Positions 1,685 through 8,498 of a DNA stretch of 9,812 nucleotides are shown here, piece after piece. How positions within the stretch are numbered: the first letter of the stretch is position 1; each line of letters begins with the position of its first letter. Below the pieces are notes generated by a model. It made no database searches and was not told where the DNA came from. It saw only the letters and a program-made list of their open reading frames with translations. Where the stretch lies: the NCBI GenBank assembly GCA_021789565.1, contig JAJYJL010000186.1:1-9812 (forward strand). Reading direction: 5' to 3'. This DNA is from Acidobacteriota bacterium. GTDB taxonomy: Bacteria > Acidobacteriota > Terriglobia > UBA7540. A program made the position numbers and the translations under genes.

Positions 1685-1701
1685 TCACTTTCCCTCGGCT
1701 T
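1685..1701 (-). pseudogene. Displaced last codons of the transposon-interrupted phage gene
   Basis: Read on the minus strand, these bases are the target-duplication copy AAGCCGAG followed by GGA AAG TGA. Joined to the 336 coding bases at 4709-4374, they restore an uninterrupted 114-aa frame ending ...AKAEGK-stop. The transposon therefore inserted two codons before the original stop and left this tail 2.7 kb away. Confidence 0.85.
1694..1701. repeat. Left target-site duplication (8 bp)
   Basis: CTCGGCTT directly abuts the left terminal inverted repeat and is identical, in the same orientation, to 4374-4381 abutting the right one. Eight base pairs is within the 8-9 bp usual for IS1-family insertions. 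The ninth base differs on each side. Confidence 0.88.
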
Positions 1702-1722
1702 GGTAGTGGTGCAGTTTGAAAA
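1702..1722 (+). repeat. Left terminal inverted repeat (21 bp)
   Basis: Starts GGTAGTGGTGCAG and ends TTTGAAAA. It is the exact reverse complement of 4353-4373, with 21 of 21 bases matching. It lies 9 bp beyond the stop codon of the 308-aa gene. Beyond base 21 the two ends diverge. Confidence 0.9.
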
Positions 1723-1731
1723 GGCGATGGT

Positions 1732-2658
1732 TTATGAAATAAGTTTTGGCTGTATCGGTCCCCGTTTGTACTCGGTGACTTGAGTAACGTCATAGGTTGG
1801 CTTTAAGATGGTCGTTCCTCTCAGTTTACGATATTCGAGGAGCGTCACGGTCAACAGGTCAGATTCATTTAGCCGGAGTTCTCCGCTGGCGATTTTAGCT
1901 AAGAAAGCCCTGTCCTTGACGTTGGCTGTGATTATTCCGTCTCCTCTCCAAAATGACCAGTCCTTACCATCGTTTCCGAACGCGCCCCGTTTGGGGTTGA
2001 GCAAAACACCCTGATGTATGATGTCCGTGACGCTCTGGTCTGGTCCAGCTAATGTTTGCGAGGATTCCTTGAATTCCTCAAGGGCTGGAAGCTCTTCTCT
2101 CGTAATGGTCACGCTCTGTTCTTCATGCTCCTCGTAAAAGGTTTTTATACTCTCGATTTCCGGCTGATCCAGCATGGGGGGAGCGTAGACCGAATAGATA
2201 TTTTGAACTATAGAGTTATTAGAAAGCAGAGAGTTGACCGCCGATTTGACGGTAAAACTAGAACCATCTTTGGCTGTGTATCTAACCTCATTCGCGCCTA
2301 GCGGTTCAACTGCTTTTGGCTTACCCTTTAGGAGTTGAATCGCGCGAACGGCCCCGATTGTCCCTCCTCCGATTAGACCTATGCATTCCAACAACTGTTC
2401 CAATTGCTCCAGAGAATGCGGCTTCAGAAGTTCAACAAGCTGATGTAAATGGCTTGGGGAAACTAAATTGAGAGCTATAATGAAGGAACCTTCTTGGAAC
2501 GGCTTGGCGTTTACGGCCAGGTCGCCGCTGTCGGGAAAAAGTTCTCTGTTACTTTCTTGAATTAAATTCCCTAGTGACAAAAGGGTAGGAGCTAGCTTGA
2601 AAACGTCGATCTCGCTGATGCCGCCCTTAAGTTCGTAGACAAGGTGAGCTTCCGCCAT
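1732..2658 (-). CDS. Transposon cargo protein of unknown function, 308 aa
   Basis: This is the largest cargo gene. It begins AEAHLVYELKGG, has a conserved-looking core KPFQEGSFII (residues 52-61), a helical stretch (67-92), and one hydrophobic Gly-rich segment (LLECIGLIGGGTIGAVRAIQLL, about 89-110) that could be a single membrane span or a buried hairpin. A beta-rich half follows, with an acidic patch EEHEEQ (176-181) and a DWSFWRGDGIITANVKD segment. No catalytic signature is recognised. I have the impression, from memory, of an uncharacterised bacterial family with a 'KPF-EGSF' motif. Its ATG overlaps the transposase remnant's TAA by one base (TAATG) with no clear ribosome site, so it is probably coupled to the remnant. 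Function unknown. Confidence 0.8.
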   Translation of the reverse strand: MAEAHLVYELKGGISEIDVFKLAPTLLSLGNLIQESNRELFPDSGDLAVNAKPFQEGSFIIALNLVSPSHLHQLVELLKPHSLEQLEQLLECIGLIGGGTIGAVRAIQLLKGKPKAVEPLGANEVRYTAKDGSSFTVKSAVNSLLSNNSIVQNIYSVYAPPMLDQPEIESIKTFYEEHEEQSVTITREELPALEEFKESSQTLAGPDQSVTDIIHQGVLLNPKRGAFGNDGKDWSFWRGDGIITANVKDRAFLAKIASGELRLNESDLLTVTLLEYRKLRGTTILKPTYDVTQVTEYKRGPIQPKLIS

Positions 2659-2984
2659 TATGGAGTCAGATGATACTCAACATTTCTTCGATTGTCCAGA
2701 CGTGATCTGTAACTCCAGCTTCCATATTGGCCCTTCTTATCGGCGGGAATGTTCCGCTGTTTGGCGTAGCAAAACTGCCAAATTTCATCGCACTGAATCC
2801 TTTTGCATTTCAGGTTAACCAACGTGCGGTCCTGATAATCGGCACAGGCAATTCCCACGTCCTTAATGAGCTTCAGTATCGTGTGCTTTGCCACGCCCGT
2901 CATGCGCTCGGCGGAGCGAATAGAGTTTCCTTCCACTAGTGCGGCGATGACTTGAGCTTGTTTTGTTCGGTTCAGTCTGTTCAT
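2658..2984 (-). pseudogene. Internally deleted IS1-type transposase
   Basis: Residues 1-88 look like the N-terminal part of single-frame IS1-family transposases: an HTH (about 17-45, GNSIRSAERMTGVAKHTILKLI), a Cys/Asp linker, and C-DEIW with the first catalytic Asp (D66), then ADKKGQYG. The family normally continues for well over 100 more residues with two further acidic residues. Here frame-1 drifts into unrelated sequence and stops at 2658. In another frame, 2725-2666 encodes MEAGVTDHVWTIEEMLSII-stop, which fits the family C-terminus. So the middle was deleted and the ends were joined out of frame. It is inactive as a transposase, but the HTH is intact and well expressed on paper: promoter 3037-3009 and GGAGAG five bases before the ATG. 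IS1's own N-terminal product, InsA, is a repressor. Confidence 0.88.
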
Positions 2985-3008
2985 GGCATCTCTCCAACTG
3001 ACGCCTTA

Positions 3009-3037
3009 AATATACGTGAGCGGCTTACGTATGTCAA
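3009..3037 (-). promoter_or_regulatory. Strong sigma70-type promoter for transposase remnant and 308-aa gene
   Basis: On the minus strand: TTGACA (3037-3032), 17-bp spacer, TATATT (3014-3009). The predicted start is near 3002, giving an approximately 18-nt leader that contains GGAGAG. The spacer and most of the -10 box are covered by the 21-bp dyad at 3012-3032, a classic repressor position. Confidence 0.75.
3012..3032. promoter_or_regulatory. Operator-like 21-bp dyad
   Basis: Near-perfect inverted repeat: arms ATACGT and ACGTAT, inner half-sites AGC and GCT, with only the two mirror-position bases and the central base breaking symmetry. Its right half (CGGCTTACGTAT, 3021-3032) recurs exactly at 3084-3095, in the spacer and -10 box of the opposing promoter. 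One regulator could thus act on both divergent promoters. Confidence 0.65.
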
Positions 3038-3069
3038 GAGAAAAATGCGGAGCGTTCAAGGATGTCTCA

Positions 3070-3098
3070 TTGACATTCCGGACCGGCTTACGTATAAT
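3070..3098 (+). promoter_or_regulatory. Consensus sigma70 promoter, predicted leaderless start
   Basis: TTGACA (3070-3075), 17-bp spacer, TATAAT (3093-3098): a perfect match in both hexamers and spacing. Six bases follow the -10 box before the ATG at 3105, so the expected +1 coincides with the A of the start codon. The repeat CGGCTTACGTAT (3084-3095) overlaps spacer and -10 box. Confidence 0.82.
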
Positions 3099-3104
3099 CA
3101 ATCT

Positions 3105-3281
3105 ATGGCTAAGAAGCTACCTCCTGAATTTCGCAAATACCTCGCAAAAATAGGGAAAAAGGGCGGTCTGAAAGGTGGATGCGCTAGGGCCGAAAAGATG
3201 ACCGCTGAAGAGCGCAGCGCAAGCGCGCGCAAGGCCGTGCAAGCCCGCTGGGCCAAACAGAAGACTAAAAACGGGGTATAA
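3105..3281 (+). CDS. Short basic KGG-type protein, 58 aa, leaderless
   Basis: The only plus-strand cargo gene. It is highly basic, with an N-terminal LPPEFRKYLAKIGKKGGLKGG, then MTAEERSASARKAVQARWAKQK. The 'GKKGG...AEERSASARKAVQARWA' pattern is typical of short proteins found repeatedly in acidobacterial and some other genomes (from memory); their role is not established, though composition fits nucleic-acid binding or an antitoxin-like partner. The frame is open upstream to 2952, but I chose the ATG at 3105 because the consensus promoter puts +1 exactly there and the protein pattern begins there. No ribosome site precedes it. It ends just before a large hairpin (3286-3344). Confidence 0.75.
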   Translation: MAKKLPPEFRKYLAKIGKKGGLKGGCARAEKMTAEERSASARKAVQARWAKQKTKNGV

Positions 3282-3285
3282 TAGT

Positions 3286-3344
3286 CGTGAAAGCAGGGGG
3301 GCTAGCCTTTGAACGGAAACTAGCCCCTTACCCTGCCTGTCACG
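3286..3344 (+). terminator. Large compound hairpin after the KGG gene
   Basis: Three nested stems: CGTGA/TCACG (3286-3290 with 3340-3344), GCAGGG/CCCTGC (3293-3298 with 3331-3336) and GGGCTAG/CTAGCCC (3299-3305 with 3320-3326), around a 14-nt loop. It lies between convergent genes. There is no U-run directly after it on either strand, so it may instead be a stabilising 3' structure or a small RNA. Confidence 0.5.
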
Positions 3345-3357
3345 CAACTTGGTTTTC

Positions 3358-3377
3358 AGCTAGGCAGAAACCTAGCT
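3358..3377 (-). terminator. Hairpin overlapping the stop of the 29-aa gene
   Basis: AGCTAGG (3358-3364) pairs with CCTAGCT (3371-3377) around a six-base loop. It covers the TAG stop of the minus-strand 29-aa gene and is followed on that strand by GAAAACC. Could be a 3' processing or weak termination structure. Its GCTAG core is shared with the 3286-3344 hairpin. Confidence 0.4.
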
Positions 3378-3465
3378 AAGGCGGTACTTCAAGGGTTACC
3401 GTGACACGTTTAAACTTCAGCGTGATCACGTAACCTTTACGGGAACGGGCTATATTGAAGCGCAT
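3376..3465 (-). CDS. Micro-protein, 29 aa
   Basis: ATG at 3465-3463 with AAAGGAGG seven bases upstream, one of the best ribosome sites in the window. Encodes a 29-residue peptide that starts MRFNIARSRKG, continues YVITLKFKRVTVTLEVPP and stops at TAG. It is strongly basic and made of alternating beta-strand residues, so a two-stranded hairpin is likely; there is no signal peptide or membrane span. It lies downstream of the 138-aa gene in the same direction, separated by 127 bp with two hairpins, and no separate promoter is obvious. Not recognised. The evidence that it is real is the ribosome site, clean composition and placement. Confidence 0.55.
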   Translation of the reverse strand: MRFNIARSRKGYVITLKFKRVTVTLEVPP

Positions 3466-3490
3466 GACCGTTCCTCCTTTCGTTAAGATG

Positions 3491-3525
3491 CCCCCGGCTT
3501 AGGTACTGCGAATACCTGCCGGGGG
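3491..3525 (+). terminator. GC-rich hairpin between 29-aa and 138-aa genes
   Basis: CCCCCGGC (3491-3498) pairs with GCCGGGGG (3518-3525), with an inner AGGTA/TACCT stem (3501-3505 with 3513-3517) and a seven-base loop. TTTCT follows on the plus strand, so it fits a terminator for transcripts coming from the KGG side. On the minus strand no U-run follows, so 138-aa transcripts could read on into the 29-aa gene. Confidence 0.55.
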
Positions 3526-3526
3526 T

Positions 3527-3544
3527 TTCTGCCTTAAAGCAGAA
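3527..3544 (+). terminator. Second hairpin, TTCTGC/GCAGAA
   Basis: A six-bp stem with a six-base loop, followed by CTTTTCCCC on the plus strand. It directly follows the GC-rich hairpin and probably strengthens plus-strand termination ahead of the convergent 138-aa gene. Confidence 0.4.
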
Positions 3545-3592
3545 CTTTTCCCCTACATTATTGAGATAGTCCTCGGGCAGATTTGGCTTGTG

Positions 3593-4009
3593 CTAGTCTC
3601 TCTTAAGCCTCCAAGTCGAAGCCACCCCCGGGACCTTTTCAAACACATCCCTTTTTCTGTGCATTGCGGCATAAAACCTGTTTCTGTCTTTGGCTTCGTC
3701 GCCGCTTCCGGCCCAGCCAAGACGGATGGCCTCTTTTACGATGTCGCCCTCGGACATCTGCGGTACACTGGCAAGAATCTTCTTGGCGATCTCTGAAGTC
3801 TCCACAGTCCCCAGGGAAGACGGGACAAATGGCGTCGGAGTGAACGCGGGAGTAGGTTTGGAATGGTTTAATCCCATCCGGCCTAGGATGGACTTATATT
3901 CCATGAGGGTCTGCTTTCTGGCCACTAGACGGTTATACTCTGACAGCTTTTTATCGAGTTCCAACAGCTCCGAGTCTACCTCTTCCAACGTCGGCGGTCG
4001 CTGATCCAT
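3593..4009 (-). CDS. Coiled-coil plus winged-helix (HARE-HTH-like) protein, 138 aa
   Basis: Residues 8-45 form a heptad-rich coiled coil (LEEVDSELLELDKKLSEYN...), 50-68 a Pro/Thr-rich linker (KPTPAFTPTPFVPSS), and 70-136 a compact C-terminal domain. That domain has the pattern of HARE-HTH winged helices: SEIAKKILASVPQMSEGDIV, then an alpha-helix with AAMHRKRDVFEKVP, and a terminal STWRLK strand. It probably dimerises through the coil and binds DNA or acts as an adaptor. It has its own promoter (4073-4045) and GAGGTG five bases before the ATG. Similar coil-linker-wHTH proteins are common hypotheticals in Acidobacteriota (from memory). It is a candidate for the regulator that reads the element's operators. 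Confidence 0.72.
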   Translation of the reverse strand: MDQRPPTLEEVDSELLELDKKLSEYNRLVARKQTLMEYKSILGRMGLNHSKPTPAFTPTPFVPSSLGTVETSEIAKKILASVPQMSEGDIVKEAIRLGWAGSGDEAKDRNRFYAAMHRKRDVFEKVPGVASTWRLKRD

Positions 4010-4044
4010 AAATACACCTCTGCCAAATAGTTCAGACGATTTTG

Positions 4045-4073
4045 AGTATGAACTACGGCGTAGGTATTGTCAA
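4045..4073 (-). promoter_or_regulatory. Sigma70-type promoter of the 138-aa gene
   Basis: On the minus strand: TTGACA (4073-4068), 17-bp spacer, CATACT (4050-4045). The spacer contains the small dyad CTAC-GCC-GTAG (4053-4063). Like the two central promoters, it combines a perfect -35 box with a palindrome inside the spacer. The leader is about 30 nt. Confidence 0.62.
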
Positions 4074-4113
4074 CTGGTTTCTACGGTCTAGGTCTAGGTT
4101 GGAACTTATTTGG

Positions 4114-4127
4114 CACAATATATTGTG
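4114..4127. promoter_or_regulatory. Perfect 14-bp palindrome
   Basis: CACAATATATTGTG is its own reverse complement. It lies about 40 bp upstream of the 138-aa gene's -35 box and 9 bp past the end of the 57-aa gene, a plausible position for a dimeric regulator. A tandem GGTCTAGGTCTAGG (4086-4099) lies between it and the promoter. Confidence 0.4.
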
Positions 4128-4135
4128 GTAAACAC

Positions 4136-4309
4136 CTACTCGTGCCCGTGATCGCCGGCACGGTCGCCCGAAGGAATTTCTTGAGCATTGCTCGTGCCGC
4201 TGCGAATTGTTTCCTGAACAGCCCGGAATGCGGCTTGATTGAAATCCTCTTTGGGCTGGCGCTTTGGTGGTTTGCGTCTCGGGGTTTTCTTCTCTAGCTT
4301 CTTTGGCAC
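4136..4309 (-). CDS. Short basic protein with a GTG start, 57 aa
   Basis: A minus-strand frame from GTG (4309-4307) to TAG (4138-4136). The first 20 residues are almost all Lys/Arg/Pro (VPKKLEKKTPRRKPPKRQPK), followed by EDFNQAAFRAVQETI and a polar tail ending GDHGHE. The K/R-rich head plus 'EDFNQAAFRAV' resembles a frequent family of tiny acidobacterial hypotheticals, which is my main support. No strong ribosome site precedes the GTG, and the frame has no ATG, so the 5' end is uncertain; the transposon's right end lies only 44 bp upstream, so the original start may have been trimmed. Function unknown; nucleic-acid binding is possible. Confidence 0.5.
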   Translation of the reverse strand: MPKKLEKKTPRRKPPKRQPKEDFNQAAFRAVQETIRSGTSNAQEIPSGDRAGDHGHE

Positions 4310-4352
4310 GACTTCATTATGACAGGATGGCGCTGCGAGTCAATGGCGCGAA

Positions 4353-4373
4353 TTTTCAAACTGCACCACTACC
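4353..4373 (-). repeat. Right terminal inverted repeat (21 bp)
   Basis: Exact reverse complement of 1702-1722. It overlaps the stop codon of the interrupted phage gene: its outermost bases supply the codons for Gly-Ser-Gly-Ala-Val and the TGA. Confidence 0.9.
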
Positions 4374-4709
4374 CTCGGCTTTGGCGATTACGCTATCAAT
4401 GTCCGCAGCAGTGGATCGGTAGTTTCTTGCGTCGTGTTCATAGGCTTTTTTGAGAGTTTCAAATCCGCAGGCAACAGCTTGCTTCTCCGAATTTTCGGCA
4501 AGCCTCAGTAGCCAGGAGCGAACCTTTTTGCATTTTTCCAGTAGTTCCGGCGCGGCGGCGATCAGGTTGGCGTTGGCGTCAGTCTCCGCGCCGTCTCCGA
4601 TGACACGAGCAATAGCTGAACGCGATGGAGCGTAGATGCTCCAAATGCTGTATCCTTCGCCGTTGTTTGCTTCCCACGGTCCCGGCGTATGTTTCGCTTC
4701 ATTTACCAT
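4356..4709 (-). CDS. Phage 'HTPGPW' protein, C-terminus rewritten by transposon, 117 aa
   Basis: The N-terminus (MVNEAKHTPGPWEANN) and the NANLIAAAPELLE segment (residues 46-58) are hallmarks of a widespread small phage protein family of unknown role, found among early genes. A helical second half follows. Start at 4709: GGAGGG is five bases upstream and the gene overlaps the 119-aa paralogue by 11 bp. Residues 1-112 are original. The last five residues (GSGAV) and the stop come from the right inverted repeat of the transposon; the pre-insertion protein ended GK and was 114 aa. Since only the extreme tail changed, it is likely still functional. Confidence 0.8.
   Translation of the reverse strand: MVNEAKHTPGPWEANNGEGYSIWSIYAPSRSAIARVIGDGAETDANANLIAAAPELLEKCKKVRSWLLRLAENSEKQAVACGFETLKKAYEHDARNYRSTAADIDSVIAKAEGSGAV
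4374..4381. repeat. Right target-site duplication (8 bp)
   Basis: CTCGGCTT, identical to 1694-1701, immediately outside the right inverted repeat and inside the KAE codons of the interrupted gene. Confidence 0.88.
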
Positions 4710-5058
4710 TGTGTCCCTCCATCAGAATTTTTCGGGGCTTGCGTACCCCGCTGCTATCACTTCCCTCCGCTTTGGCGACGGCGGATCGGAACTCGTCCCA
4801 TGCCAGATGGCTCGGCGAGAGGATCCTGGCCTCATTCACCGCGAGCAAGCGTTGGCAGGCCACTAGCAGATCCTCGAATGAGTTGCAGGACTTGATTATA
4901 AGTTCCCTGTCCTCGCTGGTGGGGTTTCCTGCTTCCCTGCCGCAGTTTACAAAGACCGAACCGCCGTCGGCCGAGATAATGCCATCTTCCCCTAATACCT
5001 CCGAGGGTCCTGCCCGCCAGCCCCAGGGAAGCGGAGAGTGTGTAAGTCCAACCTTCAT
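4699..5058 (-). CDS. Phage 'HSPLPW' protein, paralogue of the 117-aa gene, 119 aa
   Basis: Starts MKVGLTHSPLPWGW, the same N-terminal motif class as the neighbouring HTPGPW protein. It continues with a short beta region (DGIISADGGSVFVNC, about 25-39), then NPTSEDRELIIKSCNSFEDLLVACQRLLA, matching the 'N..LI..AP.LLE' helix of the family. It ends with AVAKAEGSDSSGVRKPRK and a further 11 residues. The longer frame to 5244 is rejected because the ATG at 5058 has GGAGG six bases upstream and a recognisable N-terminus. The C-terminal GVRKPRK is encoded by the 18-bp repeat that forms the leader hairpin of the next gene. Role unknown. Confidence 0.75.
   Translation of the reverse strand: MKVGLTHSPLPWGWRAGPSEVLGEDGIISADGGSVFVNCGREAGNPTSEDRELIIKSCNSFEDLLVACQRLLAVNEARILSPSHLAWDEFRSAVAKAEGSDSSGVRKPRKILMEGHNGK
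4733..4750 (-). repeat. Leader hairpin repeat, copy 1
   Basis: CGGGGCTTGCGTACCCCG, identical to 5084-5101. On the minus strand it folds into a CGGGG/CCCCG stem with an eight-base loop, about 24 bp upstream of the ATG of the 117-aa gene and just ahead of its GATGGAGG ribosome site. It also codes for part of the 119-aa protein's tail. Confidence 0.7.
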
Positions 5059-5083
5059 TGCAATCCTCCATCTCAAAAGTTTG

Positions 5084-5101
5084 CGGGGCTTGCGTACCCC
5101 G
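5084..5101 (-). repeat. Leader hairpin repeat, copy 2
   Basis: Same 18 bases as 4733-4750, here in the 71-bp gap before the 119-aa gene and again followed by GATGGAGG and the ATG. The conserved order hairpin, ribosome site, start suggests a duplicated leader with a translational or RNA-stability role. Confidence 0.7.
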
Positions 5102-5129
5102 ATGCCGGTTGTCGGCCTTCCGGCCATCG

Positions 5130-5354: not shown

Positions 5355-5407
5355 GCTTGTACTCCCTCGTTTAACGCCCGGCGGCGGTTTTGGCCTGCCA
5401 TCCTCAG

Positions 5408-5429
5408 TGTCACGCGGCCACCCGTGACA
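5408..5429 (-). terminator. Hairpin TGTCACG/CGTGACA between 85-aa and 74-aa genes
   Basis: A perfect seven-bp stem with an eight-base loop. With the adjacent 5432-5445 hairpin it makes a double structure in the intergenic gap. No U-run follows it on the minus strand, so partial attenuation or mRNA processing is as likely as termination. Confidence 0.4.
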
Positions 5430-5431
5430 GA

Positions 5432-5445
5432 CCCCCGGATGGGGG
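5432..5445 (-). terminator. Short GC hairpin CCCCC/GGGGG after the 85-aa gene
   Basis: A five-bp all-GC stem with loop GGAT, starting 7 bp past the 85-aa stop. On the minus strand it is followed by TCTGT; on the plus strand by TTTCG. A weak terminator or attenuator. Confidence 0.4.
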
Positions 5446-5451
5446 TTTCGG

Positions 5452-5709
5452 CTAAAACAGCTTGCGGCAAGCGCAGGTTGGAATGTCGCACAGGTGCCCA
5501 CCGCAGGCCTGGACCGACCGTTTAATCTCGTCAACGCTGGAGTAGGGCACACAGACGTAGACATGTCCGTCACGCTGTACGCGACCGCTCATAATGTCGC
5601 TAGCAGTCGGTTTTTGTTTGGCCATCATCGCGACCGGAACGTCTCCCACTAGCGAGTAGCTTCCGTTCCTGTTATCTATAACATGCGTAATTCCACCGAA
5701 ATTAGTCAT
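5452..5709 (-). CDS. Cys-rich C-terminus phage protein, 85 aa
   Basis: An N-terminal beta-like part (MTNFGGITHVIDNRNGSYSLVGDVPVAMM) and a C-terminal cysteine cluster (C69, C74, C79, C81 in ACGGHLCDIPTCACRKLF) that may bind a metal, with H72 a possible extra ligand. The ATG at 5709 overlaps the stop of the 34-aa gene (ATGA) and has GGGGGGTG four bases upstream. The open frame extends to 5940 but the upstream part covers the 34-aa gene in another frame. Function unknown. Confidence 0.65.
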   Translation of the reverse strand: MTNFGGITHVIDNRNGSYSLVGDVPVAMMAKQKPTASDIMSGRVQRDGHVYVCVPYSSVDEIKRSVQACGGHLCDIPTCACRKLF

Positions 5710-6848: not shown

Positions 6849-8498
6849 TTGGAGAAATTGGATTCGTTATACCGGGAGGCATGGGAGCGGGACTTTTACC
6901 AGTTCTGCGGTGCGGCCTGGAGGGTACTTGAGCCGTCGCGTCCGTGGCGGCCGACGTGGTACAGGCACGCGGTTGCGGAGCATTTGCAGGCGGCGATAGA
7001 CGGGCGGTTCAAGCGGGTGTTAATCATGGTGCCGCCGCAATCGGGGAAGTCGAGCATTGTGACAAAGCTGTTTCCGGTATGGGCGTGGCTGAAGCACCCA
7101 TCGCTAAGGTTCCTGTTTAGTTCGTACAGTTTTGAAGCTTTAGCCGTTCCCATGTCAATTGAGCGGCGGCGTCTAATTGAATCGCCGTGGTTCCGCCAGT
7201 TCTGGGGCGACAAGATCAAGCTTTCGCCGGACGACAACCTGAAGTGGCGTTACTCGAACCATGCGGGCGGGTATCATGCCGTGGTAACGGCGGCCACAGG
7301 TCTTGGCGGCGACGTGCTGCTAGTGGACGACCTTCACTCCGCAGATCAGGCGCGGTCTGACGCTGAAAGGGAAGCGGCAATCGAGCATTTCCGGTCGGCG
7401 CTGATGTCGCGGCTAACTCCGGGCGGCAGGGACATTTGCATTGTGGTATGCCAGCGGCTGCACGAGTTAGACCTTGCGGGAACGCTGATGCGGGAGGGCG
7501 GCTGGAAACAGTTGTGCCTGCCAGCGATCTGCGACCGGCCGGAAGCGCAGAAAGTCCACTTCCCGCTGCGGCAGAAATACATTATCAGGAAAATAGGGTC
7601 ACGGCTTGATCCGGAAACGATGGACGAACAGTTTCTGGCGCTCAGGAAGATCGAGCTTGGCCCTGCCGGGTTTTCGTCTCAGTACCAGCAGTCACCCGCT
7701 CCAGCCGAGGGCATTATTTTCAATCCCGCCTGGTGGCGAAGATATAAAGACGCTCCCCATTTCGAGATGATTGTGGTTTCAGTGGATGCCGCTTTCAAGG
7801 ACAACCGTGACGCGGTGGCAGTGCAGGTCTGGGGTTTTGAGGGGCCGCGCTGCTATCTGGTGACCAAGACAACTCGGCAGATGGGCTATCTCCAGACGAA
7901 GGACACCATTCGCATGTATGTGCGGCAGTACCATGCCAACGTAGTGCTGATCGAGCAGGCTGCCAACGGCGCGGCGATTGTCGAGGAACTATCGAGAGAG
8001 TTTGCGGCCATCGGCATCCCGCCGCTTGGGTCGAAAGAAGCGAGGGCGCAAGCCTGCGCTCCCACTATCGCTGCTGAACTGGGGTATCTTCCCGAAGGCC
8101 CGATGGGTGACCAGATGGCGACTGACGCCGCAAAATTCCCCCTGGGGGCCAATGACCACGATATTGATGCCATGTCGCTCGCGCTCAACTGGCGGCGGCA
8201 AAACACTTTCGGGCTGATTGAGTACTACAAGCAGATGGCGGCAAACCCTCCCGCCGAGCGGACGGCCGAAGAGAAAGCGCAGCGGCAGGCGTTTGAGAAG
8301 TCGGCGCATATCAAATTCTCGCGGCCGGATGGTGCTTTTCCGGCGTGCCATGCCTGCGGACGCTCCGGCACGGAGACTGAGCACCGGCAGTCGGTAACGG
8401 TGGTCAACGGGAGGACGGAGATCGGGGAAGAACGGATTGTCAGGTGCTCGCACTGCAAGGCCATTCAAAACCAAAAGGAAAGCGCTTTGACACAATGA
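6849..8498 (+). CDS. terL: Terminase large subunit with extra C-terminal zinc ribbon, 549 aa
   Basis: The ATP-driven DNA packaging motor and headful/cos nuclease of a tailed phage. The ATPase domain has a Walker A-like VPPQSGKSS (61-69) and a Walker B DVLLVDD (155-161). The RNase H-like nuclease domain shows VVSVDAAFKD (D313), VLIEQAANG (E369) and NDHDIDAMSLA (D438/D440), the three acidic metal ligands. Residues 500-536 add C-x2-C ... C-x2-C (C500, C503, C533, C536), a zinc ribbon beyond the normal end of the fold. Start is TTG at 6849 with AAGGGG upstream; there is no nearby in-frame ATG. Its stop overlaps the start of the next gene (ATGA). Length is in the usual TerL range plus the ribbon. 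Confidence 0.92.
   Translation: MEKLDSLYREAWERDFYQFCGAAWRVLEPSRPWRPTWYRHAVAEHLQAAIDGRFKRVLIMVPPQSGKSSIVTKLFPVWAWLKHPSLRFLFSSYSFEALAVPMSIERRRLIESPWFRQFWGDKIKLSPDDNLKWRYSNHAGGYHAVVTAATGLGGDVLLVDDLHSADQARSDAEREAAIEHFRSALMSRLTPGGRDICIVVCQRLHELDLAGTLMREGGWKQLCLPAICDRPEAQKVHFPLRQKYIIRKIGSRLDPETMDEQFLALRKIELGPAGFSSQYQQSPAPAEGIIFNPAWWRRYKDAPHFEMIVVSVDAAFKDNRDAVAVQVWGFEGPRCYLVTKTTRQMGYLQTKDTIRMYVRQYHANVVLIEQAANGAAIVEELSREFAAIGIPPLGSKEARAQACAPTIAAELGYLPEGPMGDQMATDAAKFPLGANDHDIDAMSLALNWRRQNTFGLIEYYKQMAANPPAERTAEEKAQRQAFEKSAHIKFSRPDGAFPACHACGRSGTETEHRQSVTVVNGRTEIGEERIVRCSHCKAIQNQKESALTQ

What the first reader, a model, noticed from the sequence alone, without database searches (positions are those of the whole stretch)
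1694..4381. Complete transposition scar defines an IS1-like cargo transposon
Exact 21-bp inverted ends (1702-1722, 4353-4373) and exact 8-bp direct flanks (CTCGGCTT at 1694-1701 and 4374-4381) enclose 2,672 bp. IS1-family elements make 8-9 bp duplications and their ends start GGT..TG.TGC, as here, and an IS1-type transposase remnant lies inside. The enclosed genes, five besides the remnant, are cargo rather than phage genes. I know of no described element with this content.
Basis: partly seen in the sequence, partly recalled or inferred. Interest (0 to 1): 0.9.

Follow-up and report, generated by a model that had tools for sequence, protein, structure and literature searches.

The report
IS1-like cargo transposon inside a phage
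A small jumping element of the IS1 type has inserted into a phage, carrying what looks like an antiviral defence gene instead of a working transposase, and it belongs to a scattered group of similar cargo-carrying elements.

Summary
It is a transposon, and its end is a family motif: the exact 21-mer occurs in 12 genome contigs (11 acidobacterial), a 19-bp core in 55 of 397 genomes of one order. Of 39 close end pairs in the loci held, 24 have an exact flank repeat, always 8 bp. They span 132 bp to 6.7 kb, in acidobacteria, one Dehalococcoidales bin, alphaproteobacterial plasmids and viral contigs. Two Mesorhizobium plasmids show the empty site of a sister element. The transposase is a divergent IS1 type without the InsA zinc finger. 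The window copy lost about 500 bp of it, with the presumed catalytic residues, so it is non-autonomous. Its main cargo matches PADLOC's phage-defence candidate PDC-S42; a relative elsewhere also ends beside such an end. Sister elements carry RmrT/RmrA, PD-Lambda-2-like, NYN (HEC-09), Fic and YhaV genes; a small KGG ('histone H1') gene recurs. In kind this is a transporter IS. I found no description of this subgroup in the papers searchable; ISfinder was out of reach. Defence function and enrichment are suggestive, not shown.

The parts
1694..1701 (.). left copy of 8-bp target duplication CTCGGCTT
1702..1722 (+). left terminal inverted repeat, 21 bp exact
   Evidence: same 21-mer in 12 genome contigs, 19-bp core in 55 of 397 genomes
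1732..2658 (-). main cargo gene, 308 aa: NCBIfam LAPAL_fam NF053583, phrog_3243, PADLOC PDC-S42 (phage-defence candidate); its stop lies 9 bp from the left end
   Evidence: model with C-terminal OB-like domain
2658..2984 (-). transposase remnant: about 88 N-terminal codons of an IS1-type transposase, then an internal deletion of about 500 bp relative to L123; the 3' end of the gene (about 2677-2725) is still present but out of frame; the presumed catalytic acidic residues are missing
3105..3281 (+). 58-aa KGG-motif protein ('histone H1'-like), divergent from the transposase
   Evidence: phrog_2384 partial match of the longer frame 2952-3281; 69% identical in sister L123
3593..4009 (-). 138-aa protein: long helix plus winged-helix-like domain, probable DNA-binding accessory
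   Evidence: 7 database hits, itself included; model pLDDT 80; weak winged-helix matches
4136..4309 (-). 57-aa basic protein near the right end; similar ORFs near the ends of sister elements
   Evidence: 64% identical over 47 residues in L123; similar ORFs in L081, L102 and L103
4353..4373 (-). right terminal inverted repeat, 21 bp exact
4374..4381 (.). right copy of 8-bp target duplication
4382..4709 (-). interrupted phage gene (phrog_1273, unknown function); the insertion falls before its last two codons
6849..8498 (+). large terminase of the phage (not part of the element; shows the backbone is a phage)

Best explanation
The segment 1702-4373 is a non-autonomous member of a group of IS1-type cargo transposons. 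Shown: ends, 8-bp duplication, IS1-type transposase ancestry, loss of the catalytic part, sister elements with intact transposase, and empty sites of a sister element. Inferred: an IS1-type DDE transposase bound the 21-bp ends and joined them to an 8-bp staggered cut near the very end of a phage gene of unknown function, so the phage was little harmed. The transposase was either still whole at that time or was supplied in trans by an autonomous relative in the bacterial host, probably an acidobacterium. What the element delivers is its cargo: a candidate phage-defence gene (PDC-S42/LAPAL) plus small, probably DNA-binding accessory proteins. In the phage the cargo would most likely act as superinfection protection for the lysogen.
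For: Exact ends and duplication. Of 39 end pairs with at most 1 mismatch per end, 24 have an exact flank repeat and in all 24 it is 8 bp long, never 5-7 or 9-12; 15 have no exact repeat. Two Mesorhizobium plasmids carry the uninterrupted site of the M. loti element with one target copy (CGCTGGTA for CGCTGGTG), 585/599 and 587/600 identities to the joined flanks. In Acidiphilium two plasmids span 1149 bp where the element plus one repeat copy is missing, the predicted length (arithmetic only). Relationship to IS1: Pfam PF03400 above gathering score for L008; a family HMM matches E. coli InsA in its HTH and InsB in its catalytic part. Deletion of about 500 bp with a 5-bp overlap at the junction. 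GC 49.5% inside against 56.2% outside; lower inside in 23 of 24 elements checked. PDC-S42 match E 1.5e-40 over residues 15-306. In genome G102 a 57%-identical LAPAL gene stops 12 bp before an end-like sequence in the same orientation as in the window. A distant relative (24% identity) in Listeria temperate phage vB_LmoS_188 lies between a gene annotated 'putative superinfection immunity protein' and the integrase.
Against: No empty-site sister of this phage was found. The defence role rests on a candidate profile; NCBIfam calls the same family a 'putative phage structural protein'. In three of the four genomes with a close LAPAL relative (G354, G090, G195) no transposase and no convincing end lie beside it in the stretches read; in G102 the contig starts inside the gene, so the rest of that element is not visible and its end has 3 mismatches to the consensus. 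Transposition in trans is inferred from elements without transposase, not observed.
Confidence: 0.88

Rival explanations
1. The element is an ordinary decayed IS1-type insertion; its genes are neutral hitchhikers and LAPAL has no defence role (for example it is a phage structural or lysogeny gene picked up by chance).
For: NCBIfam name 'putative phage structural protein'; many sister elements are short and gene-poor; of the 32 cargo ORFs not chosen for their look only 3 matched PADLOC, against 1 of 40 flanking ORFs, p 0.23.
Against: Over all cargo ORFs scanned 12 of 48 matched against 1 of 40 flanks, p 0.0025, including a two-gene RmrT/RmrA pair in one element with exact ends. The LAPAL frame is intact and its family is widespread (128 hits, the window's own included), and a second copy ends beside such an end.
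Confidence: 0.35
2. The segment is not a transposon but a phage-borne accessory module whose terminal repeats arose by recombination between existing repeats.
For: Phage accessory genes often lie in non-essential spots (general knowledge).
Against: Ends, length of duplication and transposase type recur in unrelated replicons with unrelated cargo and empty sites of a sister element are precise.
Confidence: 0.02
3. It belongs to the IS1595 family rather than IS1 (IS1595 is recalled to include passenger-carrying groups with 8-bp duplications).
For: 8-bp duplication; passenger genes; weak NCBIfam IS1595 match, 24.3 bits, of the full-length relative.
Against: The IS1 model scores higher (59.9 bits), and Pfam finds DDE_Tnp_IS1 and no IS1595 domain or zinc ribbon in L008; ends are GGTnnTG as in E. 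coli IS1A.
Confidence: 0.08

Closest known systems
IS1 family (E. coli IS1A as yardstick)
   Same: Ends of the GGTnnTG form, DDE catalytic part and HTH alignable with InsB and InsA; 8-bp duplication (8-9 bp recalled for IS1).
   Different: Single-frame transposase of about 280-300 aa without the InsA zinc finger; cargo genes; NCBIfam IS1 score 59.9, below its cut-off of 100.
Transporter IS (IS with passenger genes)
   Same: IS ends and IS transposase plus unrelated passenger genes; definition read in PMC3129680 passages, which cites Siguier et al. 2009 (not held).
   Different: The window copy has no working transposase; passengers here are often defence- or toxin-antitoxin-like.
Mobile insertion cassette (MIC) and MITE
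   Same: IS ends with 8-bp duplication and no working transposase; L012 (765 bp, cation-efflux gene, no transposase match) fits a MIC.
   Different: The window copy still keeps transposase fragments.
Tn7-like transposons with defence cargo (PMC8649781, abstract and outline read)
   Same: Transposon carrying antiviral defence genes.
   Different: Different transposase type and, from general knowledge, larger elements with several transposition genes.

Membership tests
IS1 family | terminal inverted repeats of the GGTnnTG type | tested here: met
   window ends GGTAGTGG; E. coli IS1A ends GGTAATGA and GGTGATGC
IS1 family | 8-9 bp target duplication (range recalled) | tested here: met
   8 bp exact in the window; in the group 24 of 39 close end pairs have an exact repeat, always 8 bp
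IS1 family | IS1-type DDE transposase | tested here: met
   For relatives: Pfam PF03400 28.6 bits above 24.1 in L008. For the window remnant itself only a sub-threshold NCBIfam match; the catalytic part is deleted
IS1 sensu stricto (InsA/InsB' type) | InsA zinc finger and two frames joined by programmed frameshift (recalled) | tested here: not met
   InsA aligns only over residues 52-89 (HTH); the 11 full-length relatives aligned are single-frame
Transporter IS | passenger genes unrelated to transposition between IS ends | tested here: met
   LAPAL and 138-aa genes inside the ends
Transporter IS | own working transposase | tested here: not met
   about 500-bp internal deletion, 3' part out of frame; full-length frames in sisters L008, L081, L082, L094, L146
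Mobile insertion cassette | IS ends, cargo, no transposase gene | tested here: inconclusive
   transposase not working but remnants persist
IS1595 family | ISXO2-like DDE domain and zinc ribbon | tested here: not met
   no Pfam PF12762 or PF12760 match at E <= 0.1 in the full-length relative L008; NCBIfam IS1595 24.3 bits against a cut-off of 75
PDC-S42 (PADLOC candidate) | profile match over the whole protein | tested here: met
   E 1.5e-40, residues 15-306 of 308
PDC-S42 (PADLOC candidate) | protection against phage | not testable with these tools
   needs a plaque assay; no paper with the term 'PDC-S42' in the library

The most novel reading that the evidence does not exclude
A distinct IS1 subgroup acts as a small, general vehicle for antiviral defence and toxin-antitoxin genes across Acidobacteria, Alphaproteobacteria and their phages, with its own conserved accessory set (KGG 'histone H1'-like protein, basic end protein, winged-helix protein). 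These accessories take part in regulating or targeting transposition, and cargo copies that lose the transposase persist because the cargo is selected, including inside phages.
Probability: 0.3. Interest if true: 0.78.

Novelty: new variant of a known kind. Interest (0 to 1): 0.6.

Why it matters
Defence genes are known to travel in prophages, conjugative elements and Tn7-like transposons. An IS-sized carrier with simple 18-21-bp ends would be a far more compact route, and one that can drop such genes straight into phages. The ends and the 8-bp signature make the group easy to map exhaustively, so the cargo of a whole transposon group in soil bacteria can be listed and tested, including uncharacterised candidates such as PDC-S42.

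Tried and rejected

A test of mine that said nothing: I counted how many exact 8-bp repeats are also exact at 9 bp (0 of 26). That count is empty, because the intervals had been chosen for 8 bp and the two registers differ. One search repeats the test for lengths 5-12 without presupposing 8, and only that result is used.

Rows dropped and limits of the PADLOC tally: cargo ORFs were chosen by eye and the plasmid records; most frames under about 90 aa and frames antisense to the transposase were left out. The 48 include elements whose end pair shows no exact repeat (L078, L111, L143, L149, L156) or where one end only was seen (L134, L141). Flanking control ORFs were the longest open frames, not annotated genes, so some may be spurious and the control too low; 40 of the 63 listed were used. 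The A3 member that matched NsnC was not identified (not among those rescanned).
Full report
Observation. The window holds a 2672-bp segment with exact 21-bp inverted ends and an exact 8-bp direct flank repeat, at the stated coordinates. A scan that asked for any exact 8-bp repeat bounding any 18-bp inverted pair around the transposase returned only this pair. The window is a phage contig: a large terminase lies at 6849-8498. No whole genome is held for it, so its host is not known; an acidobacterium is inferred from the relatives.

The end is a family motif. The exact 21-mer was found in 12 stretches of the genome collection, 11 from acidobacterial bins and one from a Dehalococcoidales bin. 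The 19-bp core matched 55 of 397 genomes of the order of G008, with reversed-pattern control counts of zero in every genome listed; with 2 mismatches allowed, in the 12 genomes, controls rise to 0-2 per genome and strand. In viral contigs a slightly looser 19-mer gave 34 stretches. In all loci held, 39 end pairs have at most 1 mismatch per end to GGTAGTGNNNCARTTTGA; 24 of them have an exact flank repeat, and in all 24 it is 8 bp, never 5-7 or 9-12. The other 15 have no exact repeat; some are alternative pairings and some have an 8-bp repeat with 1-2 mismatches. With looser ends (2 mismatches) and at most 1 mismatch in the repeat there are 33 intervals of 130-6694 bp, 26 of them exact; these include three overlapping readings in L038 and a nested pair in L080. 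The exact 8-bp repeats lean towards C/G at the outer position and A (T on the other half) at positions 2-3.

Support from empty sites. The Mesorhizobium loti plasmid element (L154 2799-6168, 3370 bp, duplication CGCTGGTG) is absent at the same place in M. huakuii 583 p_1 and Mesorhizobium sp. AR07 pMspAR07d; the joined flanks align at 585/599 and 587/600, with a single target that reads CGCTGGTA. For the Acidiphilium element two plasmids show a span of 1149 bp, the length expected without the element and one repeat copy. For the window itself no sister phage was found. There the evidence is internal: with one copy of CTCGGCTT the interrupted gene runs to a stop directly behind the site, ending ...VIAKAEGK where the interrupted frame ends ...VIAKAEGSGAV. 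A neighbouring phage gene (4699-5244, perhaps of the same family, phrog_1273 at E 0.081) contains a similar stretch, 21 of 23 alignment columns identical (repeat D6). So the insertion changed only the last residue of that phage protein.

Transposase. Relatives with the same ends have a single-frame transposase of about 280-300 aa. Pfam finds DDE_Tnp_IS1 above its gathering score in L008; NCBIfam gives IS1 59.9 bits, below its cut-off of 100, and IS1595 only 24.3. An HMM from 11 relatives matches E. coli InsA only in its helix-turn-helix and InsB in its catalytic part; the InsA zinc finger has no counterpart. Records of Acidiphilium, Mesorhizobium and Hoeflea plasmids name relatives (57-59% identity) IS1 family transposase. 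In the window the gene keeps about 88 N-terminal codons. Then the DNA jumps to the 3' end of the gene, which is out of frame; relative to sister L123 about 500 bp are missing, with a 5-bp overlap at the junction. The conserved acidic residues that align with the IS1 catalytic part lie in the missing stretch. The copy is therefore non-autonomous. Other elements have lost the transposase too: L079 and L067 keep only its 3' end, and L012, L093, L102 and L139 gave no match. In L123 the gene is broken into overlapping pieces in different frames.

LAPAL and these ends. Among 397 acidobacterial genomes 7 have a LAPAL match, four of them close. In one, G102, the gene (57% identity) stops 12 bp before an end-like sequence, GGTAGTGGGCTGTTTTGAAAT read inward, in the same order and orientation as in the window, where 9 bp separate stop and end; shuffled sequence gave 25 such matches in 1.24 million positions. 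The contig starts inside the gene, so the other end and any transposase are not visible there. In the other three (G354, G090, G195) nothing of the kind lies beside the gene in the stretches read: end-like sequences with 3 mismatches in L086 and L088 are more than 1.5 kb away. All four genomes hold relatives of the transposase elsewhere; without a background rate that says little.

Is the cargo defence? Sister elements with exact repeats carry RmrT and RmrA (L155), a PD-Lambda-2_B-like protein (L154), NYN HEC-09 (L008, L082), a Fic protein matching SoFic (L081), HicA (L080) and a YhaV toxin with an adjacent short partner frame (L079, L102). YhaV also lies in L078, PDC-S13 in L143 and PD-Lambda-2_B in L156, whose end pairs show no exact repeat, and RmrA in L141, where one end only was seen. 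In all, 12 of 48 cargo ORFs matched PADLOC at E <= 1e-5 (5 of 10, 3 of 32, 4 of 6 new ones), against 1 of 40 flanking ORFs: p 0.0025. The 32 that were not chosen for their look give 3 of 32 against 1 of 40, p 0.23, so enrichment is suggestive only.

How it most likely works. Shown: insertion with 8-bp duplication, IS1-type ancestry, loss of catalysis, cargo identity by profile. Inferred: movement by a DDE transposase acting on the 21-bp ends, in trans if the deletion came first; selection on the cargo; superinfection protection in the phage. The exact ends and duplication suggest a recent insertion.

Known or new. ISs with passenger genes (transporter ISs), MICs and MITEs are established kinds (PMC3129680, passages read). 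Defence cargo in Tn7-like transposons is published (PMC8649781, abstract and outline read). I found no description of this IS1 subgroup with defence-like cargo in the listings of my searches, but ISfinder and most subscription papers were out of reach. From memory, ISfinder lists IS1-family elements of up to several kb; that was not checked here. Hence: new variant of a known kind.

Noticed in passing
window 5389-5453 (-): Type II hammerhead ribozyme in the phage part of the window: Rfam RF02276, 56.8 bits against a gathering score of 37, full length, E 7e-10.
   Followed up: no
window 4722-4754 and 5073-5105: 33-nt direct repeat, 88% identical (GGGGCTTGCGTACCCCG core), between adjacent phage genes.
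   Followed up: no
L080 1998-6439 and 2021-5250: One element of the group appears nested just inside another, each with its own exact 8-bp duplication.
   Followed up: partly
L082 2049-6601: Element in a Dehalococcoidales bin with 35.5% GC against 53.6% in its flanks, pointing to recent transfer or a mis-binned contig.
   Followed up: no
L157 4001-4870: Unannotated IS1-like transposase frame (33% identity over 98%) in the Brevundimonas phage vB_BpoS-Gurke; no ends found by the scan.
   Followed up: partly
L012 3461-4225 and L006 4985-5747: A 763-765-bp cassette with a cation-efflux-like gene and no transposase match, in two different acidobacterial genomes (L012 exact 8-bp duplication, L006 two mismatches): a MIC of the same group.
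   Followed up: partly
L081 4813-5805: A transposase of the IS1595 type lies inside the 6.7-kb element, probably a second insertion.
   Followed up: no
window 3290-3560: Stretch with hairpin-like inverted repeats between the KGG gene and the 138-aa gene; part of it (3369-3549) is 67% identical in L123; no Rfam family.
   Followed up: partly
family NF053583: NCBI's name 'putative phage structural protein' for LAPAL may be misleading: PADLOC lists the same kind of protein as a defence candidate and the Listeria phage relative is not among structural genes.
   Followed up: partly
L085 21-884 (G102): Second LAPAL gene that stops 12 bp before an end-like sequence of the group; contig cut on the other side.
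   Followed up: partly
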